Source of the DNA: Crossiella sp. SN42
GTDB taxonomy: Bacteria > Actinomycetota > Actinomycetes > Mycobacteriales > Pseudonocardiaceae
Assembly (NCBI RefSeq): GCF_023897065.1
Contig: NZ_JAMHIV010000012.1
Span: 1 to 64,000, forward strand
Direction of reading: 5' to 3'
DNA length: 64,000 nt
The notes beneath the pieces are model-generated. The model saw nothing but the letters and a program-made list of their open reading frames with translations. It did no database searches and was not told the DNA's origin. Positions 49,612-62,358 of this stretch are shown here, piece after piece. The translations under genes were made by a program, and so were the position numbers. The first letter of the stretch is position 1; each line of letters starts with the position of its first letter.

Positions 49612-50267
49612 ATGCGAGTCATCACCCAGCAGGAGTTCGGCGGTCCCGAGGCGCTCACCATCGTGGACGCGCCCGCGCCGCAGCCGCTGCCGACCGAGGT
49701 TCTGGTCCGGGTCAAGGCGATCGGGCTGAACCCGGTGGAGGCGCGGCTGCGCGCCGGTCAGTTCCCGTTGCTCGGCCGGCCGCCGTTCGTCCTCGGCTGG
49801 GACATCGGTGGCGTGGTCGAGCAGGCGCGGACTGGGCGGTTCCGGACCGGCGACGAGGTGTTCGGAATGCCGCTGTTCCCCAGAGCGGCCAACGCTTATG
49901 CCGAAGTCGTGGCCGCGGCGTTGCCGGTGGTCGGGCTGACGGCGTGGCAGGGCCTGGTCGACCTCGGCGGTGTGACCGCGGTCGACCTCGCCAGGGCCGT
50001 CCGCGACATCGACCTGGTGCTCGACACGATCGGCGGTGACACCCTCGAACGGTCGCTCGGCGTGCTCCGCCCCGGAGGCCACCTGGTCACGGCAGTCGGC
50101 GAGGAGGACGCGGAGCTCATCGCCGAGTTCGAGGCAGCCGGGATGCGCTTCAGCGGCATCGCGGTGGACCCGGATCCGTTGGCGCTGCGCGGTTTGGTCG
50201 CGTTGCCGACGCGCACCGGCTGCTCGACCGTGGTCACCTCCAGGGCAAGCTCGTCCTCACCGTCTGA
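49612..50267 (+). pseudogene. NADPH:quinone oxidoreductase-like (zinc-less MDR) gene with internal deletions and frameshift
   Basis: N-terminal GroES-like part is intact (MRVITQQEFGGPEALTIVDA, GLNPVEARLRAGQFP, VLGWDIGGVVEQ). A segment before VEAAALPVVGLTAWQG is shortened, and the NADPH-binding Rossmann part with its GGxGxVG motif is missing between DLGGVTAVDLA and VRDIDLVLDTIGGDT. Near 50200 the frame slips: ADAHRLLDRGHLQGKLVLTV to TGA 50265 continues in another frame after a further ~25-codon loss. The unslipped frame runs on to 50454 but is meaningless. The protein cannot bind cofactor. Confidence 0.75.
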
Positions 50268-50316
50268 TCCCGCGCTACAAGCCGGCCTCCGCGGTCAGGT
50301 CGCCGGTCGGTTCCGT

Positions 50317-51525
50317 TTACTCCATTGTGGACGGTGGGCCGAGCAGCACCGGGAACGTCCGCGGCGCGTGCACGTGCACGCTGCGCCGGAAGGTGAGCTC
50401 CTCCTCCCCCGTGGCCGCCCGGATGTGCGGGAACCGGGCGAACAGGGCGGGTAGGGCGACCTCGGCCTCCAGGCGCACCAGGGCCGCGCCCAGGCAGCGG
50501 TGCAGGCCGTGGCCGAAGGCGAGGTGGCCGGCCGGGTCGCGGTCCGGGTCGAGCCGGGTGGGGTCCGGGAAGCGGTCCGGGTCGCGGTTGGCCGCGCCGG
50601 TGGACAGGGTCACCGAGGCGCCGCGCGGGATGGTGGTGCCACCGATCTCCAGGTCCTCGGTGGCGAAGCGGACGGAGGCGTTGAGCGCCGGTGAGACCCA
50701 GCGCAGCAGTTCCTCGGTGAGGGCGGCGGCGGAGTCCGGAGTGGACAGACGGTGCCGGGCCGCCGGGTCGGCGAGCAGGGCGCGGACGCTGTTGGTGATG
50801 AACACCGCGCTGGTCTCGTGGCCCGCCATCAGCAGCAGCAGCGCCATCGCGACGATCTCGAGGTCGGAGAGGCGGTTGCCGTCCTCGGCGGCGGCGATCA
50901 GGCCGGACAGCAGCGCCTCGTCGGGCTCCCGCCGCCGGATCGCGACGAGCTCGCCCAGGTAGTCGGCCATCTTGGCGCAGACCCGCGCCAGCTCCTGCTC
51001 CGGGCACTCGTCGATCAGCACCGTCGACCAGTGCGCGAAGGTCTCGCGGTCCAGCTCGGGCACGCCGATCAGCTCGCAGATGATCTCCATCGGTAGCGGG
51101 ATCGCATAGCGCGCAACCAGATCGACCGGTTCGTCCGAGGGCAGGCCGGCCAGCAGGTCCCTGGCGAAGGTCTGCACCCTCGGGCGCAGGCCGGCCACGC
51201 GGCGGGCGGTGAACGCCTGGGTGACCAGCCTGCGCAGCCGGGTGTGCTCGGGCGGGTCGAGGGAGGTGAGCATGTGCGACATGGGCGGGGGCAGGGCGGG
51301 CGGGGCCGCGGCGCGCTCCTCGGCGGGCAGGCTGGCCCGCCGGTCCTTGGCCAGTCGCGGATCGGCCAGCCCCGCCCGGACGTCGGCGTAACGGGTGACC
51401 AGCCAGGTCGGCCCGGTCTCGAAGGTCACCTCGCGGACCGGGGTGTGCTCGCGGGCGCAGGCCAGGGCGGGGTGCGGGTCGCGCCAGTAGGACTCCAGGA
51501 AGTCCTCGCCGGTGATGCTGCTCAT
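50317..51525 (-). CDS. Cytochrome P450 (bacterial class I type)
   Basis: A 402-residue soluble P450. I-helix oxygen-activation motif AGHETS (~238), K-helix ExxR as EELLR (~280), heme-binding loop FGHGLHRCLGAALVRLE (~345, Cys ligand). The Ala/Gly-His-Glu-Thr form is canonical, so it should be catalytically competent with a ferredoxin partner from elsewhere. Starts 12 bp after the TauD-like gene on the same strand, so cotranscribed. Likely a late hydroxylation step of the adjacent terpenoid pathway (inference). CGGAGAG precedes the ATG. Confidence 0.93.
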   Translation of the reverse strand: MSSITGEDFLESYWRDPHPALACAREHTPVREVTFETGPTWLVTRYADVRAGLADPRLAKDRRASLPAEERAAAPPALPPPMSHMLTSLDPPEHTRLRRLVTQAFTARRVAGLRPRVQTFARDLLAGLPSDEPVDLVARYAIPLPMEIICELIGVPELDRETFAHWSTVLIDECPEQELARVCAKMADYLGELVAIRRREPDEALLSGLIAAAEDGNRLSDLEIVAMALLLLMAGHETSAVFITNSVRALLADPAARHRLSTPDSAAALTEELLRWVSPALNASVRFATEDLEIGGTTIPRGASVTLSTGAANRDPDRFPDPTRLDPDRDPAGHLAFGHGLHRCLGAALVRLEAEVALPALFARFPHIRAATGEEELTFRRSVHVHAPRTFPVLLGPPSTME

Positions 51526-51537
51526 CGGGCTCTCCGT

Positions 51538-52374
51538 TCAGTCCTTGACCGCGGTCGCGCTCATCCCGGTGACCTGGTGGTCCGGCCACCGTGCCCCGTC
51601 GCCCTTCGGCTCGTCGCCGAGCACCGTGACCCGGTGGCCCACCCGGCGTTCGGTGTAGTCGTTGACGGCGTAGTGCTGGGTGGCGCGGTTGTCCCACATC
51701 GCCACCGCGCCCTCGATCCACCGGTAGCGGCACACCCGTTGCGGGCTCTCCGACACGGTGAACAGGTGGGTCAGCAGGGCCGTGCTCTCCTCGGCGGTCA
51801 GCTGCGGGATGCGCTTGGTGAACATGCGGTTGACGTACAGGGAGCGCCTGCCGGTCTCCGGGTGCGTGCGGACCACCGGGTGCTCGGCCTCGCTGCGGTA
51901 GGAGCCGCCGGGCAGCTCGAAGACGTGGCGGGCGGTGAGGCCGTCGACCAGCTCCCGGATCGGCGCGGACAGCGCCTCGTAGGCCAGGTACTGGTTGCTC
52001 CACATGGTGTCCCCGCCAACCTCGGGGGAGGTGACGATCTGCAGCACCGAGGCGATCGGCGGGTTCGGCGCGAAGGTGACGTCGGTGTGCCAGACGTCGG
52101 CCTTGGCGCCCTGGTCGGAGTCGAGCACCACGATCTCCTCGTGCCCGGCCAGCTTCGGCAGGAACTTGTGCACCTCCAGCGGGCCGAACCGGCTGCCGAA
52201 GGCCTTGTGCGCCTCCGGGGTGAGCCCGGCCGCCTCGGGGAAGAACAGCACGAGGTGGTCGAGCAGCAGCTGGTGGATCTGCGCGAACAGGGCGTCGTCG
52301 ACCTCGGCGAGGGTAACGCCCCGGACTTCGGCGCCCAGCGCCCCGGTCAACGGCCGCACAGCGAGTGAACCCAT
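51538..52374 (-). CDS. TauD/TfdA-family Fe(II)/2-oxoglutarate dioxygenase
   Basis: A 278-residue dioxygenase. Iron ligands are visible as HxD in WHTDVTF (~98) and the distal His in [10 protein letters not shown] (~245), with the 2-oxoglutarate Arg in RRVGHRVT (~255). ATG 52374 is chosen because AAAGGAG lies at good distance; an ATG at 52410 has no such site and would add [12 protein letters not shown], which is the leader itself. Cotranscribed with the P450. Could hydroxylate or desaturate a pathway intermediate. Confidence 0.92.
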
Positions 52375-52400
52375 ACCGCGAACTCCTTTAAACGCATTCT

Positions 52401-52411
52401 TGATAACCATT
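52401..52411. promoter_or_regulatory. TGATAACCATT, half of the Zur-like box A
   Basis: This 11-mer is identical to the first 11 bases of the box at 19075-19089 and lies 27 bp before the TauD-like start. The other half is not conserved (CCGCG instead of TTCA), so a functional link is uncertain. Confidence 0.25.
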
Positions 52412-52529
52412 CCGCGATTCCCGGAATGGATTCGACAAATAGCCCCGGGACCTTGCCCGGTTCAGTTCGGAAATGCCATTCTCACGCCAGCAGTGAATTC
52501 ACCTCCGGGCCGTTCCCGAAAGGACCGCC

Positions 52530-53546
52530 GTGACCAGTGAGACCACGGACCACCAGGCAGCCACCGCCGCGCTGGCCGGGCTTGTCGACCTCGCCACGCC
52601 GTTCGCGGTGCGCACCGCCGTCGCGCTGCGCCTGCCCGAGCTCATCCGCGACGGGCACACCACCACACCCGCGCTGGCGCAGGCCTGTGCCGCCGACCCG
52701 GACGCGCTGGCCCGCCTCCTGCGCCACCTGGTCGCGGTCGGCCTGTTCGCCGAGCCCGCCCCCGGCCAGCACGCGCTGACCGCGGTGTCGCGGGCGCTGC
52801 TGGACGAGCGCAACGCGCTGCTGCGGTCCTGGCTGGACGCGGACGGCCCCGGGCTGAAGATGGACCTGGCCTACGCCGGCATGCCGCACTCGGTGCGCAC
52901 CGGGGAGTCCGGCTACGGCGTGGCGCACGGCACCGGTTTCTGGTCGGACTACCGGGCGGATGAGCGGCTGCGCCTGTTCTTCGGCGAGACGATGGCCGGT
53001 TTCGCCTGGCAGACCGGCCCGGAGGTGGCCGCCCGCGCGGACTGGGCCGGGGTGTCCAGCGTGCTGGACGTGGGCGGCGGCACCGGGGCGCTGCTGGCGG
53101 CCATCCTGGACGCGCAGCCCCACCTGACCGGGGCGGTGCTGGACCTGCCCGAGGTCCGGCCCGAGGCCGAGCAGTTCCTGGCCGGGCTCGGCGGCCGGGC
53201 GAAGTTCGTCGGTGGCAGCTTCCTGGACCCGCTGCCCACCGGCTACCAGGTGCTGGTCGTCTCCCGGGTGCTCACCGACTGGCCCGACGCGGACGCCGTG
53301 CGGATCCTGCGTCGCTGCGCCGAGGCACTGCCCGAGGGCGGGCGGGTGCTGGTGGTGGAGGTGCTGGCCGGCGCCGAGCACGCCAAGAACAACTCCTCCT
53401 TCGACCTGCAGTCGCTGACCCTGCTCGGCGGGCGCGAACGCAGCCCGGCGGACTTCGACGAGCTGGCCGCGGCCGCGGGCCTGGTGCGGACGGACCGCAC
53501 CGACGGCGACAACGGCTTGGTGGTGCTGGGGTACGGCAAGGCCTGA
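52530..53546 (+). CDS. SAM-dependent O-methyltransferase (plant OMT/DnrK-like)
   Basis: A 338-residue methyltransferase: N-terminal winged-helix dimerisation domain (~10-95, LRHLVAVGLFAEPAPGQHAL), then a Rossmann SAM domain with VLDVGGGTG (~180), acidic residue in LDLPEV (~208) and FVGGSFLDPLP (~230). Same family as aclacinomycin/carminomycin O-methyltransferases, acting on phenols or hydroxyls of natural products. GTG start. Divergent from TauD/P450 and convergent with the FAD enzyme gene, inside the putative terpenoid cluster. Confidence 0.93.
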   Translation: MTSETTDHQAATAALAGLVDLATPFAVRTAVALRLPELIRDGHTTTPALAQACAADPDALARLLRHLVAVGLFAEPAPGQHALTAVSRALLDERNALLRSWLDADGPGLKMDLAYAGMPHSVRTGESGYGVAHGTGFWSDYRADERLRLFFGETMAGFAWQTGPEVAARADWAGVSSVLDVGGGTGALLAAILDAQPHLTGAVLDLPEVRPEAEQFLAGLGGRAKFVGGSFLDPLPTGYQVLVVSRVLTDWPDADAVRILRRCAEALPEGGRVLVVEVLAGAEHAKNNSSFDLQSLTLLGGRERSPADFDELAAAAGLVRTDRTDGDNGLVVLGYGKA

Positions 53547-53548
53547 GG

Positions 53549-54817
53549 TCACCGCGCCGCCTCCCCGGCCGGTGCCGGGGCGGCGGTGCGCACCCAGTCC
53601 GGCAGCCTGCGCGCCCGAGGATCCGGCAGCAGCCGCGCCTGGTGCAGCCGGTCCAGCAGGGTCAGCTTGCGCACGCCCAGGCCGGACATGGTGTGCAGGA
53701 CCTCGTGCCGGATGCGGTCGTTGCCGCCCGTGCCCGCCAGCGCCCTGGCCCCGAGCCAGGACCGGGTGGTGATCATCCGGGCGGCGTTGTGGCTGGTCCG
53801 GCCGATGTGCGCGAGGTTGGCCCGCCGCGCGCGGTCGTAGCGGCGCAGCGCGTGGTCGACCACCTCGGGGGCCAGCGAGCCGCCCTGGCGCAGCACCGCG
53901 GCCAGTTCGTGCGCGTCGGCGATCGCGCTGTTCATGCCCTGCGCCGCCATCGGGTGCACCAGGTGACCGGTGTCGCCGGCCAGCGCCAAGCCGGGCACGA
54001 CCAGCGAGGCGGCCAGCGCGCGGCCCACCGGCAGCAGCTGCCGCTGGGCCAGCCCCGCGTGCAGGGCCCCGGCCAGGGGTGCCAGGCCGGGGCAGCCCGC
54101 CAGCACCCCGTCGGCCCACCGGCGCAGGCCGTCCTGGTCGAGTCCGCGCAGCTCGTCCGGTCCGATCTGGACGTAGAGCCGGACCCGCCTGCCGGGCAGC
54201 GGGTAGTGCAGGCGCAGCCCGCCGTCGGTGACGTAGGCGGAGAAGTCGGGCGGCACGTCCGCCTCGGCCAGCTCGAAGGCGGCCAGCCGGTGCGGGTAGT
54301 CCTGGCGCGGCGCGCTCAGCCCGGCCGCCTCCCGCAGCCGCGAGGACACGCCGTCGGCGGCCACCACCAGCGCCGCCGGGAGGTCACCGTCATCGCAGCG
54401 CACGCCGGTGATCCGGTCGCCGGCGCGCAGCGGCTCGCGGACCACCACGCCACGGCGCACCTCGACGCTGGGCGGCAGCGCGTCGGTGAGCGCCTGGAGG
54501 ATCACCGGGTAGTCGTGCGCGAGCAGCCACGGCTGTTCGGCAGGCAGCCGGTGGTAGTCCAGGACCATCCGCGGCTCACCGTCGGCGGCGCGGGCGACCA
54601 GAGTGGACAGTCGCAGCGCACCAGCCTGGTCCAGCAGCTCGGTCACGCCCCACTGCCGCAGGATCGCCAGCGAACCTGGTTGCAGCACCTCGCCTTTGGC
54701 CACCCGGGCGGGGGTCTGCCGCTTCTCCAGCACCAGGACCCGGTGCCCAAGACGGCCCAGCGCGCAGGCCGCGGCCAGCCCGGCCACCCCGGCGCCGACG
54801 ACCACGATGCGGCTCAC
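53549..54817 (-). CDS. FAD-dependent monooxygenase, terpene/squalene-epoxidase-like
   Basis: A 422-residue flavoprotein: GAGVAGLAAACALG (~8), KGEVLQPGSLAIL (~45) and GDTGHLVHPMAAQGMNSAI (~285). GExLQPGG is a feature of squalene epoxidases and bacterial terpene epoxidases, distinguishing it from aromatic hydroxylases. GTG 54817 overlaps the stop of the cyclase-like gene. Last gene of the five-gene operon; epoxidation of a prenyl chain before cyclisation is the likely role (inference). Confidence 0.9.
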   Translation of the reverse strand: MSRIVVVGAGVAGLAAACALGRLGHRVLVLEKRQTPARVAKGEVLQPGSLAILRQWGVTELLDQAGALRLSTLVARAADGEPRMVLDYHRLPAEQPWLLAHDYPVILQALTDALPPSVEVRRGVVVREPLRAGDRITGVRCDDGDLPAALVVAADGVSSRLREAAGLSAPRQDYPHRLAAFELAEADVPPDFSAYVTDGGLRLHYPLPGRRVRLYVQIGPDELRGLDQDGLRRWADGVLAGCPGLAPLAGALHAGLAQRQLLPVGRALAASLVVPGLALAGDTGHLVHPMAAQGMNSAIADAHELAAVLRQGGSLAPEVVDHALRRYDRARRANLAHIGRTSHNAARMITTRSWLGARALAGTGGNDRIRHEVLHTMSGLGVRKLTLLDRLHQARLLPDPRARRLPDWVRTAAPAPAGEAAR

Positions 54818-56475
54818 CGGGTGACCGCCTGGAACCGGCCGAGTGCGCGCAGCGCCATGCCGTGGGTGAAGCCGGGGTTGGCGTAGCGGCTGACCCGGCG
54901 GACGTACTCGTGCACCGGGTGCGGCGTCCACCCGCCACCGGGCAGGCGAGCCGCGAGTAGCCAGCGCACGCCGTCCGCGGCGGCCTCCCGCTCCCCCGCC
55001 GCCAGCAGCGAGGACACCGCCCAGCCGGTCTCCTCGACGGTGCCGGGCGCACCGTGCCCGTCCCCCCAGGACCCGTCGGCGTTGCGCGCGCCGAGCAGCC
55101 AGTCACGCGCCCGCACAGCGGCAGTGGACCCGGTCTGTCCACATCGGACAAAGGTCTCCAGCACCGCGGCGGTGCCCATCGTGTGCTCCCGGTACCAGAC
55201 CGACTCGTAGCCGCCGTCGGGCAGCTGCGCCCGGCCCAGCCAGCGCAGGGCGCGCCGGATCCGCTTGTCCCCGGCGGGCACGCCCGCGTCCAGCAGCGCG
55301 TCCACGGCCTGCGCGGTGGTCATCGGGCACGGGCCACTGTTGGCGACCTTGGTGTTGCGCACGCACAGGCCCCAGGAACCGCGGCTGTCCTGGCGGTCGC
55401 TGAGCCAGGCGACACCCTGGGCGATGGCCTGTTCCTGCCCGGTGCCGGGCGAGCGGGCCAGCACGGAGATGATCTCGCCGGTCTCCAGCACCGCGGGCCA
55501 GCCGTTGGGCCCCGACCAGCCCCAGAAACCCGGCGGGCAGCCGAAGGCCAGGAACGGCCGGTGTTGTTGCAGGCGCACGAACAACTCCCGGGCGGCGGCC
55601 ACTCCCGGGTGGTCGCGGTAGCCGGCCTCCAGCAGGCCGCGCGCGGCGTACATCGTCCAGGCCGCGTCCAGCGGGGTGGAGGCCCAGGAGCCGTCGGGGT
55701 GCATGGTGCGCCGGAACCAGCCCACCGCCGCCTCGACCATGTCCGGGGCCAGGCCCGCCCGCGCCAGTCCGGCGCAGACCAGGCCGGTCACCCACGCGTC
55801 CTCCGACCAGGAACCCGCCGAGCCCTCGTGCTCGAAGGCCTGCCGGATGCACAGGAGCGCCTTGGGTTCGGCCCAACGGGCCAGCCGCTGTTGCAGCCGG
55901 GTCAGCGGGCGGTGCCGGGTCTGGGCCAGGCCGAGCGCGGAGGCCATCGGCAGCCGCAGGTCGAACAGGCGGCGGTACAGCCCCGGCACCAGCGCGAGCT
56001 CCAGCGGGAAGCGGCGCATCTGGCTGGGGGCCAGCCAGCCGGCGAAGCCGTAGAACTGGCGGCACCACAGCACCACCTCCGGATGCGGGATCGCTTCCAG
56101 GCCGCCGTAGTCGTCCAGCCAGCGCCGTCCCGCCGCGACCTGCTCGGCGTTGCCCGCCGGGTCGACCAGGTGCAGGGCCGCCGCCGACACCGCGGTGGGG
56201 CCCGGTTCGCTCGGCAGGCCCGGCACCATCGCCCAGCCGCCGTCCTCGTTCTGCGTGCGGCGCAAGCGATCCGCACCGGCACCGATCAGGTCGGGCGCGC
56301 CACCGGGGTCGGCGAAGTGCAGCGCGGTGATCGCGCCCGCGGTGGCCAGGGTGGACCGCAGGCTGCTGGCCCCGTAGTCGAACACGCCGTCCGGCCGCTG
56401 CGCCGCCAGCAACGCCTCGGCGCCCTCCTCGATGGCGGTGGCGAGCTCTTCCGTGCCGGTGTGAGCCGAGGTCAT
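54814..56475 (-). CDS. Prenyltransferase/squalene-oxidase-repeat protein, class II terpene cyclase fold
   Basis: A 553-residue alpha-alpha barrel protein with at least six QW-type repeats (NEDGGWAM ~70, HPDGSWAS ~265, SRGSWGL ~380, LPDGGYESVW ~435, NADGSWGDG ~480, GGGWTPH ~525). Length and repeats match squalene-hopene-type cyclases, but the acid motif DxDD is not visible; the equivalent position seems to read CPMTTAQAVDALL. So it may start cyclisation differently (for example from an epoxide), or be non-catalytic. ATGA overlap with UbiA. ATG 56475 chosen by overlap; the longer frame is UbiA antisense-frame sequence. Confidence 0.85.
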   Translation of the reverse strand: MTSAHTGTEELATAIEEGAEALLAAQRPDGVFDYGASSLRSTLATAGAITALHFADPGGAPDLIGAGADRLRRTQNEDGGWAMVPGLPSEPGPTAVSAAALHLVDPAGNAEQVAAGRRWLDDYGGLEAIPHPEVVLWCRQFYGFAGWLAPSQMRRFPLELALVPGLYRRLFDLRLPMASALGLAQTRHRPLTRLQQRLARWAEPKALLCIRQAFEHEGSAGSWSEDAWVTGLVCAGLARAGLAPDMVEAAVGWFRRTMHPDGSWASTPLDAAWTMYAARGLLEAGYRDHPGVAAARELFVRLQQHRPFLAFGCPPGFWGWSGPNGWPAVLETGEIISVLARSPGTGQEQAIAQGVAWLSDRQDSRGSWGLCVRNTKVANSGPCPMTTAQAVDALLDAGVPAGDKRIRRALRWLGRAQLPDGGYESVWYREHTMGTAAVLETFVRCGQTGSTAAVRARDWLLGARNADGSWGDGHGAPGTVEETGWAVSSLLAAGEREAAADGVRWLLAARLPGGGWTPHPVHEYVRRVSRYANPGFTHGMALRALGRFQAVTR

Positions 56476-57473
56476 GTCCGGTCCCCTCCCCCGGCCTGCG
56501 CCGGGAACTCGTGGCGGGCCCGCATCCGGGCCTGGACGACGATCGAGAACGCCAGCGCGGGCAGCAGCACCAGCAGGGCGGTGCCAGGACCCGTGGCCCC
56601 GGCCACCACGGCGGCCGCGAGCACGAGCCGTTCGGCCACCAGCAGTTCGTGGGCGCGCAACGCTCGGCGCGCGGTCAGGCCGACAGGTCGGGCTGTCGCC
56701 AGTGCGCAGCCGCCGACCACTGCGGCGACAGTGAACAGGGCCAGCTGGGGGCCGGGCCGGGGGGCCAGGAACGCACCGGCCACCAGCGCGGCGATGCCCG
56801 CCGCCCACAGCGTCGCGGCCAGCCGCACCGCCGCGACCACCCCGTGCCGCACCGGCACCGACCGGTAGCCGCCCGCCCGGTCGCCATCAACGTCCCGGAC
56901 CGTGCCGATCAGGTTGGACGCGGTGTCGTGCAACAGAAATCCGGCGGCCACCGGCGCGAGGGCCCACGGCGGCCAGGGGACCGCGGTCATCGCGCCGACC
57001 GCCAGCGCGAGCGCGGAGAGCACGCCCCGGCTCAGGTTCCCGGCGAAGCCCATGCGCTTGAACACCGCGCTGTAGGCGACGATCCCGCTCATGGTCACCG
57101 CGAACACCGGCAGGATCCGCCAGTTGACCGCGACCGCACCCGCCAGCGAGGCTGCCGCGCAGCCGATCCCGCACCACAGCGCCGTGCCGGGGGCGAGCCT
57201 GCCGGAGGGGATCGGGCGCTGAGGTTTGGCGATCGCGTCCAGGTCCCGGTCGAAGTAGTCGCCCAGGTAGTGCCCGGACAGCCAGCCCAGCACCGGCGAC
57301 AGCACCGCGACGAGCAGCCCGGCGGGTCCCGCACCACCTGCCGCCAGCGCGCCGGCCAGCCCCAGCAGCGCCGGATAACACGTCGTGTACGGCCGCCAGG
57401 TCTGCCAGTGCGCCAGTGCCCGCTCGCGCACCGGCCTGCCGCTGCGACCGAGCTCGCGCAGATCAGCGGTCAC
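56472..57473 (-). CDS. UbiA-family aromatic/membrane prenyltransferase
   Basis: A 333-residue integral membrane protein with about eight helices. Two Asp-rich Mg-diphosphate motifs: DYFDRDLDA (~78, form of NDxxDxxxD) and DVDGDRAGGY (~198). It transfers the polyprenyl group made by the next enzyme to an acceptor, probably derived from the aminotransferase step. GTG 57473 overlaps the polyprenyl synthase gene by 11 bp. Confidence 0.93.
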   Translation of the reverse strand: MTADLRELGRSGRPVRERALAHWQTWRPYTTCYPALLGLAGALAAGGAGPAGLLVAVLSPVLGWLSGHYLGDYFDRDLDAIAKPQRPIPSGRLAPGTALWCGIGCAAASLAGAVAVNWRILPVFAVTMSGIVAYSAVFKRMGFAGNLSRGVLSALALAVGAMTAVPWPPWALAPVAAGFLLHDTASNLIGTVRDVDGDRAGGYRSVPVRHGVVAAVRLAATLWAAGIAALVAGAFLAPRPGPQLALFTVAAVVGGCALATARPVGLTARRALRAHELLVAERLVLAAAVVAGATGPGTALLVLLPALAFSIVVQARMRARHEFPAQAGGGDRT

Positions 57474-58470
57474 GGTCGACCGCGATCTCGGCAAGGGCGG
57501 CGAGCCTGCCCGCGGCGGCGGTCCCCGGCAGTTCGGGCAGCCGCGCCACGGCGAGCGCGGACCGCTCCCGCGCGCCCTCCCTGGCGGTGCCGAGCGCGCC
57601 ACTGCCGAGCACGGCGAAGCGGAGCAGCTCCAGCGCCTCGGCGGGTTCGACCGAGCCGGACAGCGCGGTCTCCACCGCCCGCCGGTGCCCGGTCTCGCCG
57701 TCGCGGTGGGCGATCAGCACCGGCCAGGTCGGCCGGAGGTTGGCCGCGTCGCTGGTGGTGGGCTTGCCCGCGGCGGCGCAGCCGTCCAGGTAGGGCAGCA
57801 GGTCGTCGTACATCTGGAAGGCCACCCCGGTGTGGTGGCCGAAGTCGGCGAGCAGGTCGGCCTGCCCGGCCGTGCCGCCGCCGAGCAGCGCGCCGACCCG
57901 GCAGGCGGCGCGGAACAGCGCGCCGGTCTTGAACGCGGCCACGTCGAGGTAGTCGCTCAGGCCGCTGCCGGGCCGCCCCGCGCCCGGCGGCACCATCGCG
58001 GACTCGAGCACCTGGCCGCGGCAGAGGTCACCGCCCGCGCGGGCCAGCTCGGCCACGGCCGCGACGACCGCCTGCGGGGGCGCGGCACTCTCGGCCGCGG
58101 CGGCGAACAGGTCGAACAGCAGCGCGTCGCCGGTGACGATCGCGTCCGCAATGCCGTGCCGGGCGTGCACCGAGGGCCGGCCCCGGCGCAGGTCGTCGCC
58201 GTCAATGATGTCGTCGTGCACCAGCGAGGCCACGTGCAGGTGCTCCACCGCCACCGCCGCGGGCAGCACGGCGCCTGCCTGGCCGCCGACGGCTTCCGCG
58301 GCCGCGATGAGCATCAGCGGGCGCAGCAGCTTGCCCGGCACCGCCATGGCGTAGCGGGTCAGCTCGTCAAGCCGGTCGCCGCCGCGGCGGCGGTCGGCCA
58401 GCGCCTCCCGGATCAGCGCGAGGGCGTCCCCGGCAGGCGGGCGCAGCGCCGGGCTGACCGTGCCAGTCAC
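57463..58470 (-). CDS. Polyprenyl diphosphate synthase (trans-type, likely C20 or longer)
   Basis: A 335-residue isoprenyl diphosphate synthase. First Asp-rich motif VHDDIIDGDD (~88), second FQMYDDLLPYLDG (~220). The residue five before the first DDxxD is Ala, a small side chain, which in this family usually allows chains of at least geranylgeranyl length. Substrates IPP and an allylic diphosphate. GTG 58470 overlaps the aminotransferase stop (GTGA). Exact chain length needs assay. Confidence 0.94.
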   Translation of the reverse strand: MTGTVSPALRPPAGDALALIREALADRRRGGDRLDELTRYAMAVPGKLLRPLMLIAAAEAVGGQAGAVLPAAVAVEHLHVASLVHDDIIDGDDLRRGRPSVHARHGIADAIVTGDALLFDLFAAAAESAAPPQAVVAAVAELARAGGDLCRGQVLESAMVPPGAGRPGSGLSDYLDVAAFKTGALFRAACRVGALLGGGTAGQADLLADFGHHTGVAFQMYDDLLPYLDGCAAAGKPTTSDAANLRPTWPVLIAHRDGETGHRRAVETALSGSVEPAEALELLRFAVLGSGALGTAREGARERSALAVARLPELPGTAAAGRLAALAEIAVDRDR

Positions 58471-59492
58471 CGGAGTGCCCCCTCGGTCTGCGGGGCGGCC
58501 AGCGCGGCGAAGGCCCGGGCGGCGGCCAGCACAACATCGTTTGCGTGCGGCAGCCCGGTGCTCACCCGCACCCCGCCCGCCACCTCGCGCACGGCCACGC
58601 CGTGCCCGGCCAGGTGCGCGATGAACTCCTGGTTGCGCGCGCCCAGCCGGACCCACAGGTAGTTCCCGCCACTGGGTGGCACGTCGAAGCCCAGCTCGGT
58701 CAGCCCCCGGCGCACCCGGTCGCGCTCGGCGGCGACCTCGCGGCACTGCTCGCGCATGCGGGCACCGGCATCCAGCGCGGCCAGCGCCGCGGCCTGGGCC
58801 ACCGTCGGCACCCGGTGGAACGGACTCGTCCGGCGCAGCGGGGCCACCAGCTCCTCGGCACCGGTGAGGTAACCGACGCGTAGCCCGATCAGCCCGTGCG
58901 ACTTGGAGAACGTGCGCACCACAGCCACCCGACGGTCCTTTGTGGACAACCCCGCCGCGTCCGCGATGGCGGCCGGATCGGCGAACTCCCGGTAGGCCTC
59001 GTCGACGAGCAGCACCACGTGCGCGGGCAGCGCCGCCAGCAACGCGGTCAGCTCGCCGGTGCCGAGCACCTCGCCGGTGGGATTGTTGGGGTTGCACACC
59101 AGCACAACCCGGGTCCGGTCGGTGACCGCCGCGGCCAGGGCGTCCAGGTCCTGACCGCCCCGGCTGTCCCCGGGCACGGCGACCGGTTCGGCGCCGGCGT
59201 TGCGGATCAGCAGCGGGTAGAGGTCGAAGGAGGGCCAGGTGTGCAGCACCTCGCTGCCCGGCCCGCAGTGCGCGGTCAGGAACTGCTGCAACAGCGCCCC
59301 GGACCCAGCCCCGGCGACCACCCGGCCGGCCGTGACACCGAGCTCGGCGGCCAGCCGGTCCTCCAGCCGGGCGGCGAGCGCGTCCCCGGTCAGGTTGACC
59401 GAGCCGAGCGAGTCCACCAGGGCCTCGCGCACCCCCGGCAACATCGGCCAGTGGTTCTCGTTCAGCGCCAATTGATGAATTATCCGATCCAA
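58467..59492 (-). CDS. PLP-dependent class I/II aminotransferase (HisC-like)
   Basis: A 341-residue aminotransferase. NPNNPTGEVLG (~135), DEAYREF (~165), the PLP Lys in TFSKSHGLIGLRVGY (~195) and RVSTG (~318). Relatives use histidinol phosphate or aromatic amino acids. Start is TTG 59492, with GAGGAAGG ~9 nt upstream; no ATG fits. First gene of the five-gene operon, which suggests it makes or modifies the prenyl acceptor. About 350 residues is the family's normal size. Confidence 0.92.
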   Translation of the reverse strand: MDRIIHQLALNENHWPMLPGVREALVDSLGSVNLTGDALAARLEDRLAAELGVTAGRVVAGAGSGALLQQFLTAHCGPGSEVLHTWPSFDLYPLLIRNAGAEPVAVPGDSRGGQDLDALAAAVTDRTRVVLVCNPNNPTGEVLGTGELTALLAALPAHVVLLVDEAYREFADPAAIADAAGLSTKDRRVAVVRTFSKSHGLIGLRVGYLTGAEELVAPLRRTSPFHRVPTVAQAAALAALDAGARMREQCREVAAERDRVRRGLTELGFDVPPSGGNYLWVRLGARNQEFIAHLAGHGVAVREVAGGVRVSTGLPHANDVVLAAARAFAALAAPQTEGALR

Positions 59493-60884: not shown

Positions 60885-61286
60885 TCACGCGACCGCGGTC
60901 CCCTCCAGCTCGACCATCAGGCCGGGGATCGCCAGCCGGTTCACCCCGAGCATCGTGGTGGCCGGGGCGACCCCGGCCGCGGCCAGTCGCGCGGCCAGCA
61001 CGCCGTAGTGCGGGAACAGCTGGTCGACGTCGGTGGTGTAGACGTTGAGCCGGACCAGGTTCGCCAGGGACATGCCCGCTTCGGCGAGCACGGCCTCCAG
61101 ATTGTCCAGGGTCAGGGCCAGCTGTGCCGCCAGGTCACCGGCGTGCTGGGCCTGGCCGTCCTCGCTCATCGCGGTCTGCCCGGAGCAGTACAGGGTCCGG
61201 GTGTGCCCGGAGACCAGTTCGCCCTGGTTGTACCCCAGCTCCACCGACCACTGCCACGGGTTGACCGCCGTTCGCCGCACTGCCAC
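60885..61286 (-). CDS. RidA/YjgF-family enamine/imine deaminase
   Basis: A 133-residue trimeric-barrel protein. LVRLNVYTTDVDQLFPHYGV (~78) and TMLGVNRLAIPGLMVELEGT (~112) are the family signatures; the catalytic Arg of canonical RidA (usually in 'PAR.') is here within VNRLAIPG. It hydrolyses reactive enamine intermediates or a related compound. Divergent from the WYL regulator, which probably controls it. Confidence 0.9.
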   Translation of the reverse strand: MAVRRTAVNPWQWSVELGYNQGELVSGHTRTLYCSGQTAMSEDGQAQHAGDLAAQLALTLDNLEAVLAEAGMSLANLVRLNVYTTDVDQLFPHYGVLAARLAAAGVAPATTMLGVNRLAIPGLMVELEGTAVA

Positions 61287-61341
61287 ATCAGCTCCATCTG
61301 GTTCATCGAGGTGCCCTGTCGCCCTGAACCTGCCACCGAAT

Positions 61342-61360
61342 CACGACATCCTGTGTCGTG
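61342..61360. promoter_or_regulatory. Palindromic operator between RidA and WYL genes
   Basis: CACGACA-TCCTG-TGTCGTG, perfect 7-bp arms, 20 bp before the WYL regulator ATG and 55 bp before RidA. Likely site for the WYL regulator at both promoters. Confidence 0.6.
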
Positions 61361-61380
61361 TATTCCGCTACCGTTTCCGT

Positions 61381-62358
61381 ATGCGCGCCGACCGGTTGGT
61401 CTCACTGGTGCTGCTGCTGCGCCAGCGCGGCCGGCTGTCCGCGGGCACGCTGGCCCGCGAGTTGGAGGTGTCCACCCGCACCGTGCTGCGGGACATCGAG
61501 GCGCTGTCCGCGGCCGGCGTTCCGGTCTACGCCGAACGCGGCAGGCACGGCGGTTTTGCCCTGTTGCCCGGCTTCCACACCGAGCTCACCGGGCTGAACC
61601 ACGACGAGGCGCTCGCCCTGCTGGTGGCCGGATCACGGCGCGGCGCGCAGGTGTTCGGCCTCGGCTCGGCGCTGGCTTCGGCCATGCTCAAGGTGGTGGA
61701 CGCGCTGCCGGAAGGTCATCGGGACACCGCGGCCGGCGTGGCCGAGCGATTGCTCATCGACCCGGAGACCGACCTGCTCTCCCGCCGCGTGGCCGCCGAG
61801 GAGGCGCCGGACACCGTAGTGGCCGAGGTCCGGCGCGCGGTGTTCGCCGGGCGCAAGCTGCGCATCCACTACGCGGCCACCGGCCAGGCGCCCCAGTGGC
61901 GCACGGTGGATCCGATCGGCCTGGTCACCGTGCGGGAGCAGGGTTACCTGCTGGCCACCAGGTCTGGCGCGGAGCGCACCTATCGGCTGTTCCGGGTGCT
62001 GGCCGCCGAGGCGCTCGCCGAACCCGCGGAGCGCGCGGCCCGGGTCGATCTGGACCGGGCCTGGCGGGAACGCAGCACGCGGTTCCGCACCGGCGGCGAC
62101 CAGGTCGCCGTGCTGGCCAGGGTGAGCCCGGTGCGGCGGGAGGAGCTGGTGGACACCGCGCTGGCCGTGCGCGCCGAGGAAACCGACGCGGATGGCTGGC
62201 TGCGGCTGGAGGTGAGCTTCCAGGACGCCCGGCACGCCGAATGGGCCCTGTGGCAGCTCAGCACGGACGCGGAAGCCCTTGCCCCGCAATGGTTGCGCGC
62301 CAAGCTGCGGGAACGCGCCGCCGCGATCGCCAGTCGCTACACAGCGGACACGACCTAG
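61381..62358 (+). CDS. HTH/WYL-domain transcriptional regulator
   Basis: A 325-residue DeoR-like regulator: N-terminal HTH (RLSAGTLARELEVSTRTVLR, ~18-37), WYL ligand domain (~140-225, RKLRIHYAATGQAPQWRTVD; the WYL core is diverged) and a WCX C-terminal domain. ATG 61381 chosen because the HTH starts 5 residues in; the longer frame is RidA promoter sequence. Its TAG stop overlaps the TAG of the convergent gene within CTAG. Confidence 0.92.
   Translation: MRADRLVSLVLLLRQRGRLSAGTLARELEVSTRTVLRDIEALSAAGVPVYAERGRHGGFALLPGFHTELTGLNHDEALALLVAGSRRGAQVFGLGSALASAMLKVVDALPEGHRDTAAGVAERLLIDPETDLLSRRVAAEEAPDTVVAEVRRAVFAGRKLRIHYAATGQAPQWRTVDPIGLVTVREQGYLLATRSGAERTYRLFRVLAAEALAEPAERAARVDLDRAWRERSTRFRTGGDQVAVLARVSPVRREELVDTALAVRAEETDADGWLRLEVSFQDARHAEWALWQLSTDAEALAPQWLRAKLRERAAAIASRYTADTT

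What the first reader, a model, noticed from the sequence alone, without database searches (positions are those of the whole stretch)
50317..59492. Uncharacterised meroterpenoid pathway with an unusual aminotransferase-led operon
Five genes are translationally coupled (HisC-like aminotransferase, polyprenyl diphosphate synthase, UbiA, cyclase-fold protein, epoxidase-like FAD enzyme) and flanked by an O-methyltransferase, a TauD dioxygenase and a P450. Polyprenyl synthase + UbiA + epoxidase + class II cyclase is the known logic of bacterial meroterpenoids. An aminotransferase as first gene suggests an acceptor derived from an amino or keto acid. I do not recall a described pathway with exactly this set; I could not search.
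Basis: partly seen in the sequence, partly recalled or inferred. Interest (0 to 1): 0.78.

Follow-up and report, generated by a model that had tools for sequence, protein, structure and literature searches.

The report
Orphan terpenoid amino-acid gene cluster
A block of eight bacterial genes that probably builds a ring-shaped terpenoid carrying an amino-acid tail, related to the antibiotic phenalinolactone and perhaps to the immunosuppressant brasilicardin, in a form that recurs in many soil actinobacteria and for which we found no known product.

Summary
Five minus-strand genes (aminotransferase, polyprenyl synthase, UbiA, squalene-hopene-cyclase-like protein, FAD monooxygenase) overlap by 4, 11, 4 and 4 bp, beside an O-methyltransferase, a TauD-family dioxygenase and a P450. 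All but the P450 form a set: 53 of 91 distinct cyclase loci, window included, carry all seven.

The logic is partly known. The dioxygenase is PlaO1-like (354 bits; taurine dioxygenase 208). A Streptomyces contig with a 98.9% PlaO1 match shares UbiA, cyclase, FAD enzyme and dioxygenase with the window but has no such aminotransferase. Four PlaO1-clade loci lack it in the stretches read; 61 of 66 dioxygenase-bearing loci have it. So it is probably not acceptor supply but a tail switch: UbiA joins a polyprenyl chain to a C3 keto acid, which becomes a lactone without the aminotransferase and an amino acid with it. Dioxygenase plus methyltransferase recall the C16 methoxylation of brasilicardin. 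The cyclase has the class II fold without DXDD. Acceptor, chain length and product are inferred; brasilicardin genes could not be compared.

The parts
58467..59492 (-). HisC/Pat-like PLP aminotransferase, first gene of the five-gene operon; proposed to aminate a terpenoid alpha-keto acid
   Evidence: PF00155 173 bits; best NCBIfam PRK03321 332.6 bits, below its cutoff of 374; hisC 220.8 of 276.55; best PDB sequence match 4r2n, putative phenylalanine aminotransferase, 222 bits
57463..58470 (-). trans-polyprenyl diphosphate synthase
   Evidence: PF00348 176 bits; DDIID motif, second motif DDLLP. Chain length not determined
56472..57473 (-). UbiA-family membrane prenyltransferase
   Evidence: PF01040 102 bits; DYFDRDLDAIAK and DVDGD motifs; nearest PDB match digeranylgeranylglyceryl phosphate synthase, weak, 34 bits
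54814..56475 (-). class II (squalene-hopene-cyclase-fold) terpene cyclase without DXDD; L330-E331 in its place
   Evidence: PF13243 and PF13249; AlphaFold model pLDDT 94.1, Foldseek top hit 1sqc E 9e-23; motif by two alignments
53549..54817 (-). FAD monooxygenase, presumed polyene epoxidase
   Evidence: PF01494 95.7 bits, PF08491 squalene epoxidase 23.5 bits; GxGxxG and GD motifs
52530..53546 (+). O-methyltransferase, convergent with the operon
   Evidence: PF00891 136 bits; a relative in 53 of 66 dioxygenase-bearing loci
51538..52410 (-). Fe(II)/2-oxoglutarate dioxygenase of the PlaO1 type
   Evidence: 7qtd PlaO1 354 bits against 208 for the best taurine dioxygenase
50317..51525 (-). cytochrome P450, accessory tailoring enzyme
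   Evidence: PF00067; best PDB match vitamin D hydroxylase 3a4g 386 bits; relative of 60% or more identity in 28 of 52 core loci, window included

Best explanation
A biosynthetic cluster of the phenalinolactone/brasilicardin kind, in a branch that carries an aminotransferase. Proposed route: the polyprenyl synthase makes a long prenyl diphosphate (C20 or C25, inferred); UbiA joins it to a C3 keto acid, probably pyruvate or an enol equivalent (inferred); the FAD enzyme epoxidises the far end (inferred from family); the SHC-fold cyclase, which lacks the DXDD general acid, opens the epoxide and closes the rings (fold predicted, chemistry inferred); the aminotransferase turns the alpha-keto acid into an alpha-amino acid (inferred); the PlaO1-type dioxygenase and the O-methyltransferase put a methoxy group beside it, as Bra0 and Bra11 are reported to do on brasilicardin (inferred by analogy); the P450 adds an oxygen. 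Product: an unglycosylated polycyclic terpenoid beta-methoxy amino acid.
For: PlaO1 is the best solved match of the dioxygenase by a wide margin. The contig with a 98.9% PlaO1 match encodes UbiA (46%), cyclase (39%) and FAD enzyme (48%) beside it and a polyprenyl synthase (36%) elsewhere, plus MEP-pathway, sugar-nucleotide, glycosyltransferase and acyl-CoA dehydrogenase genes, as I recall for the phenalinolactone cluster. Its cyclase has FLDS where the window has VLET: both lack the central Asp. The aminotransferase is not found in the stretches read of four PlaO1-clade loci, which are split from the 61 other loci in the tree, all with it, with support 1.0; of 66 dioxygenase-bearing loci 61 have it and the fifth without, L145, is a cut contig. 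Locus L100 (genus of Nocardia) has the dioxygenase divergent from AT-PPS-UbiA-CYC-FAD-P450, then a PapA-type acyltransferase and the O-methyltransferase. For brasilicardin, bra0 is divergent from bra1-bra11, bra1-bra6 make the core, bra7-bra10 are for 3-hydroxybenzoate and rhamnose, and bra0 (a dioxygenase) and bra11 for methoxylation; it has an amino acid side chain (PMC7837296, introduction read; PMC12185567, passages). Pyruvate as source of the phenalinolactone lactone is recalled from Durr 2006, which is not held.
Against: The bra sequences could not be reached, and the passages I saw do not say which enzyme each of bra1-bra6 is, so the link to brasilicardin rests on layout; the clade joining L100 to the glycosylated group has support only 0.69. 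No substrate of the aminotransferase or UbiA is known; the aminotransferase looks most like a putative phenylalanine one, which would also suit an aromatic keto-acid acceptor. In zigralone biosynthesis an aminotransferase-PPS-UbiA trio is proposed to act on tryptophan (PMC13307353). Eight loci with aminotransferase and dioxygenase show no such O-methyltransferase, and L073 has the five operon genes but neither dioxygenase nor O-methyltransferase in the 16.2 kb read (it ends 2.4 kb beyond the aminotransferase). A DegT sugar-type aminotransferase is on the phenalinolactone-like contig, so that contig is not free of all aminotransferases. Absence was judged within stretches of about 10 kb either side of the dioxygenase for two of the four PlaO1-clade loci.
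Confidence: 0.62

Rival explanations
1. The aminotransferase supplies the acceptor: it deaminates an aromatic amino acid to its keto acid, UbiA prenylates that, and the product is an aromatic meroterpenoid (zigralone-like logic).
For: Closest solved aminotransferase is a putative phenylalanine aminotransferase. In zig, AT + PPS + UbiA are proposed to build the prenylated indole intermediate from tryptophan (PMC13307353, two of three parts of the text read).
Against: The phenalinolactone-type loci share UbiA, cyclase, FAD enzyme and dioxygenase but show no such aminotransferase. zig needs a TPP enzyme and a Pyr4-like cyclase; no TPP enzyme is among the ten flanking proteins scanned. I did not search the related loci for TPP enzymes. 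The zigA deletion still gave product, so even there the aminotransferase is dispensable in the host used.
Confidence: 0.22
2. The cluster makes an atolypene-like tricyclic sesterterpenoid (C25), the atolypene cluster being a member of this same family.
For: Atolypenes are tricyclic sesterterpenoids from an Amycolatopsis cluster (PMC10301674, passages); orthologous seven-gene loci occur in named Amycolatopsis records L014, L015 and L023.
Against: The atolypene paper is not held and its genes were not compared; the polyprenyl synthase motifs do not settle C20 against C25.
Confidence: 0.2
3. The genes belong to primary metabolism (histidine, quinone, hopanoid).
For: HisC, UbiA, UbiH and SHC family resemblance.
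Against: The curated models listed for the aminotransferase, synthase, UbiA, cyclase and FAD enzyme are all below cutoff (best 25 of 67 and of 93 shown for two of them); matches at E up to 1e-30 in only 57 of 297 family genomes; the cyclase lacks DXDD while a hopanoid SHC keeps it.
Confidence: 0.02

Closest known systems
Phenalinolactone cluster (pla, Streptomyces sp. Tu6071) and its analogue tiancilactone (the latter from a review only)
   Same: PlaO1-type dioxygenase, UbiA, FAD enzyme and DXDD-less class II cyclase side by side; polyprenyl synthase in the cluster
   Different: Window has an aminotransferase and an O-methyltransferase for which no relative was found on the pla-like contig; that contig has sugar, MEP-pathway and acyl-CoA dehydrogenase genes of a kind not seen among the ten proteins scanned beside the window cluster
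Brasilicardin A cluster (bra0-bra12, Nocardia terpenica)
   Same: Dioxygenase and a second gene for a methoxy group, amino acid side chain, tricyclic terpenoid core, operon of core genes (PMC7837296, PMC12185567); L100 is a possible sequence bridge
   Different: No glycosyltransferase, acyltransferase or 3-hydroxybenzoate gene among the ten flanking proteins scanned; dioxygenase not divergent from the core; bra sequences not compared
Zigralone cluster (zig, Micromonospora zingiberis)
   Same: Aminotransferase, polyprenyl synthase, UbiA, methyltransferase, P450 (PMC13307353)
   Different: zig uses a Pyr4-like membrane cyclase, a P450 epoxidase and a TPP enzyme; the window has an SHC-fold cyclase, an FAD enzyme and a dioxygenase
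Brasilicardin-like terpene cluster Q of ant-associated Pseudonocardia Ps2
   Same: Reported as a terpene cluster with weak similarity to brasilicardin (PMC5183585, passages); a Pseudonocardia record, L016, carries relatives of all eight window genes
   Different: That cluster Q is the same as L016 is a guess; not compared

Membership tests
Phenalinolactone-type (pla) pathway | PlaO1-type dioxygenase rather than taurine dioxygenase | tested here: met
   354 against 208 bits; 61% identity to PlaO1
Phenalinolactone-type (pla) pathway | UbiA, FAD epoxidase-like enzyme and DXDD-less class II cyclase beside the dioxygenase | tested here: met
   46, 48 and 39% identity to the pla-like contig; motif
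Phenalinolactone-type (pla) pathway | No HisC-like aminotransferase; sugar and MEP-pathway genes in the cluster | tested here: not met
   Window has the aminotransferase; no such genes among the ten flanking proteins scanned
Phenalinolactone-type (pla) pathway | gamma-butyrolactone product | not testable with these tools
   needs chemistry
Brasilicardin-type (bra) pathway | Homology of bra0-bra6 to the window genes | not testable with these tools
Brasilicardin-type (bra) pathway | Dioxygenase and a methyltransferase present, for methoxylation | tested here: met
   roles of bra0 and bra11 from PMC12185567 and PMC7837296; that bra11 is a methyltransferase is inferred
Brasilicardin-type (bra) pathway | Dioxygenase divergent from the core operon | tested here: not met
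   in the window it is co-oriented with the operon and divergent from the O-methyltransferase; divergent from the core in L100
Brasilicardin-type (bra) pathway | Glycosyl- and 3-hydroxybenzoyl-transfer genes | tested here: not met
   none among ten flanking proteins scanned
Canonical class II terpene cyclase | SHC-like fold | tested here: met
   predicted model
Canonical class II terpene cyclase | DXDD with central Asp | tested here: not met
   L330-E331; no Asp at the central position in any of 66 dioxygenase-bearing loci: Leu 64, Met 1, Val 1
Zigralone-type pathway | TPP enzyme and Pyr4-like cyclase | tested here: inconclusive
   not among the eight cluster proteins or ten flanking proteins scanned; no dedicated search was made
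Histidinol-phosphate aminotransferase (HisC) | score above the curated cutoff | tested here: not met
   220.8 against 276.55 bits

The most novel reading that the evidence does not exclude
A widespread, largely uncharacterised actinobacterial family makes terpenoid beta-methoxy alpha-amino acids; one aminotransferase gene decides whether a shared terpenoid keto acid ends as a lactone (phenalinolactone side) or as an amino acid (this side), and the rings are closed by class II cyclases that lack the general-acid Asp and open an epoxide with a single Glu or Asp one position along.
Probability: 0.45. Interest if true: 0.62.

Novelty: new variant of a known kind. Interest (0 to 1): 0.48.

Why it matters
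It turns an orphan cluster shared by dozens of actinobacterial genomes into a family with a testable product class. Brasilicardin, a possible near product, is said in a paper title (Usui 2006, seen in reference lists) to target amino acid transport system L, so relatives with an amino acid tail would be of pharmacological interest. The presence and absence of the aminotransferase on an otherwise shared core offers a clean test of how one gene changes the end group of a terpenoid, and the DXDD-less cyclases are a handle on how class II cyclases start from epoxides.

Tried and rejected
Rejected: L130 (a 9.3-Mb genome of the Nocardia genus) as the brasilicardin cluster; it is a hopanoid locus with a normal SHC. 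PLDAAW as the catalytic motif: its Asp is not conserved and two alignments place DXDD at AVLE. Chain length from the Asp-rich motifs: similar residues occur across the family. A conserved eighth gene: clustering flanking ORFs of 52 loci gave mostly what look like antisense shadow ORFs, so it is inconclusive. The NCBIfam label pentalenolactone synthase for the P450 (231.5 bits, cutoff 700) is not adopted; vitamin D hydroxylase scores 386 in the PDB.

Dropped rows and bias: loci were chosen by cyclase, UbiA or dioxygenase similarity, so the counts are not a random sample. Loci with identical cyclase proteins were counted once. A minus-strand coordinate bug made the ORF list wrong; its tblastn hits stand and the list was redone. 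In one search a 150-residue cutoff hid the aminotransferase of L070, which is cut by its contig end. L145 is a cut contig. L073 has no dioxygenase or O-methyltransferase in 7.9 kb beyond its FAD gene; its other side ends 2.4 kb beyond the aminotransferase; my note put this down to the contig end, which is only partly so. One search's tree was rooted on the AT-minus clade by choice, so it shows a split, not a direction; it holds 65 of 91 loci, those with all four proteins.

No listed title or abstract describes this exact set; most hits were not opened. Papers of which only passages were seen: PMC10301674, PMC8222398, PMC8532670, PMC5183585, PMC12185567, PMC9802219, PMC7441235, PMC5159576, PMC10204089, PMC6680616, PMC9814783; sections read: PMC7837296 (introduction, besides passages), PMC12153302 (one section, besides passages), PMC13307353 (two of three parts). 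No biosynthetic cluster database was available.
Full report
Observation. The eight genes are real and placed as stated. The five-gene operon runs on the minus strand from 59492 to 53549 with overlaps of 4, 11, 4 and 4 bp. The O-methyltransferase lies on the other strand and ends 2 bp short of the FAD gene's end; the dioxygenase and P450 form a separate minus-strand pair. Families: Aminotran_1_2, polyprenyl_synt, UbiA, SQHop_cyclase, FAD_binding_3, Methyltransf_2, TauD, p450. The curated NCBIfam models listed for the aminotransferase, synthase, UbiA, cyclase and FAD enzyme are all below cutoff (for the aminotransferase and FAD enzyme the best 25 of 67 and of 93 families are shown).

Conservation. 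A scan of named genome contigs gave 17 loci related to the cyclase, 16 of them with relatives of the other six core genes. Their record titles name Lentzea, Amycolatopsis, Pseudonocardia, Saccharopolyspora, Nocardia, Streptomyces, Actinosynnema, Umezawaea, an unnamed actinobacterium and a contig labelled as another phylum. I fetched 12 stretches and 55. Among 76 distinct cyclase loci, the 52 with cyclase identity of 42.5% or more (window included) had AT 51, PPS 52, UbiA 52, FAD 52, OMT 51, TauD 51; the 24 below had AT 0, PPS 13, UbiA 16, FAD 9, OMT 1, TauD 0. The one missing AT (L070) is a gene cut by a contig end; the missing OMT and TauD (L073) are not explained by a contig end alone. The set survives rearrangement: in the Umezawaea and Actinosynnema records and in several loci of the genus that holds the Saccharopolyspora records the cyclase and P450 sit in one block and most of the rest in another (genus by matching contig lengths). 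A close P450 is present in 28 of 52. Flanking window genes are little or not conserved, which puts the cluster borders near 50317 and 59492.

What the dioxygenase says. Its best solved match is PlaO1 (354 bits, E 9e-105), far above taurine dioxygenase (208 bits); that PlaO1 belongs to phenalinolactone biosynthesis is recalled, and the review names other pla genes there (PMC10301674, passages). Among 392 genomes of the Streptomyces genus 17 have a relative at E up to 1e-65. I read the neighbourhoods of 16; the 17th, G471, is the genome of L021, read earlier. One contig, G686:C121, encodes a protein 98.9% identical to PlaO1 over 261 residues and also DXS, GcpE, a polyprenyl synthase, an EryCIII-type glycosyltransferase, sugar-nucleotide genes, an acyl-CoA dehydrogenase and a KAS-III-like protein (16 of its ORFs were scanned). 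I take it for the phenalinolactone cluster or a near twin. It shares with the window TauD 60%, FAD 48%, cyclase 39%, UbiA 46%, PPS 36%. It has no aminotransferase of the window's type: neither tblastn (E up to 1) nor a profile built from the family finds one on the 51-kb contig, though a DegT sugar-type aminotransferase is there.

The aminotransferase as a switch. Pooling all loci gives 91 distinct cyclases; 66 have the dioxygenase nearby, 61 of these the aminotransferase. The five without are four PlaO1-clade loci and one cut contig. On a tree of UbiA, cyclase, FAD enzyme and dioxygenase from 65 loci the four are split from the 61 AT-bearing loci with support 1.0. The review describes tiancilactones, close analogues of phenalinolactones, as carrying a gamma-butyrolactone; I recall, but could not open, the report that the phenalinolactone lactone comes from pyruvate (Durr 2006). 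[quoted passage not shown] PMC12185567, passages). The simplest reading is one shared step, prenylation of a C3 keto acid, followed by lactone formation without the aminotransferase or amination with it. This is inference. Against a tight functional unit: eight loci with aminotransferase and dioxygenase show no such O-methyltransferase, and L073 shows neither.

Bridge to brasilicardin. L100, from a genome of the Nocardia genus, has the dioxygenase divergent from AT-PPS-UbiA-CYC-FAD-P450 (the P450 by a 34% tblastn hit), then a PapA-type acyltransferase and the O-methyltransferase. That is like the reported order: bra0 divergent from bra1-bra11, core genes first, 3-hydroxybenzoate and rhamnose genes next, a methoxylation gene last. 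The passages I saw do not name the enzymes bra1-bra6. PMC12153302 (section read) says an N. arthritidis genome keeps 9 of 13 bra genes; that L100 is that genome is a guess. The bra proteins themselves were not compared. L100 groups with six loci (support 0.69), one of which, L035, was scanned and has two EryCIII-type glycosyltransferases, a condensation-domain protein and P450s. No glycosyltransferase or condensation-domain protein is among the ten proteins scanned beside the window cluster.

The cyclase. The model has pLDDT 94 and matches SHC, OSC and drimenyl diphosphate synthase structures. Aligned with a normal SHC, its D-x-D-D falls on A328-V329-L330-E331. Among the 66 dioxygenase-bearing loci the motif ends LET in 52, LES in 8, LDS in 4 (the PlaO1 clade), MET in 1 and VET in 1; none has Asp at the central position. 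Of the 25 other loci 16 keep ExED or ExDD, six have a Leu/Met-Glu/Asp form like the core, and three have neither. PMC9814783 (passages) calls the central Asp almost 100% conserved in the type II synthases it collected by similarity to Tpn2. [quoted passage not shown] that paper is not held. The acid may be E331; conservation alone does not prove it.

Verdict. Observation confirmed, interpretation partly supported. A new variant of a known kind, probably making a terpenoid amino acid, with a clear genetic test for the role of the aminotransferase. It is filed neither as a phenalinolactone nor as a brasilicardin cluster, because a defining feature of each was not met. Product, chain length and acceptor remain open.

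Noticed in passing
G000:C1:438674-440311 (locus L029): The window's own genome has a second, distant cyclase of this kind (37%) with a polyprenyl synthase, UbiA and P450s but no hit for the window's aminotransferase, O-methyltransferase or dioxygenase nearby; two same-genus genomes have a like locus.
   Followed up: partly
window 49612-50454: Zinc-type alcohol dehydrogenase with only partial domain matches, running convergently into the P450 end; looks truncated.
   Followed up: no
window 61045-62358 and 62355-64697 (runs beyond the window end, locus L028): A WYL-type regulator and an NB-ARC/TPR regulator lie upstream of the operon, followed by an MFS transporter at contig position 65453-66940. 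Neither regulator gave a hit in the 17 named loci.
   Followed up: partly
L031, L047, L053, L056: Some loci carry two aminotransferases, one by the cyclase (68-73%) and one by the polyprenyl synthase (57-60%).
   Followed up: no
L135 15494-16396: A fumarylacetoacetate-hydrolase-family gene sits beside UbiA on the phenalinolactone-like contig; it may bear on keto-acid handling.
   Followed up: no
L025: Relatives of seven window genes lie on a contig labelled Candidatus Melainabacteria, with the cyclase in two frames; a contig of the same length, in G014, is placed in the window's family by the genome search, so the label looks like a binning or naming error.
   Followed up: no
L073: The five operon genes in the window's order, but no relative of the dioxygenase or O-methyltransferase in the 16.2 kb read; a possible minimal version of the pathway.
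   Followed up: no
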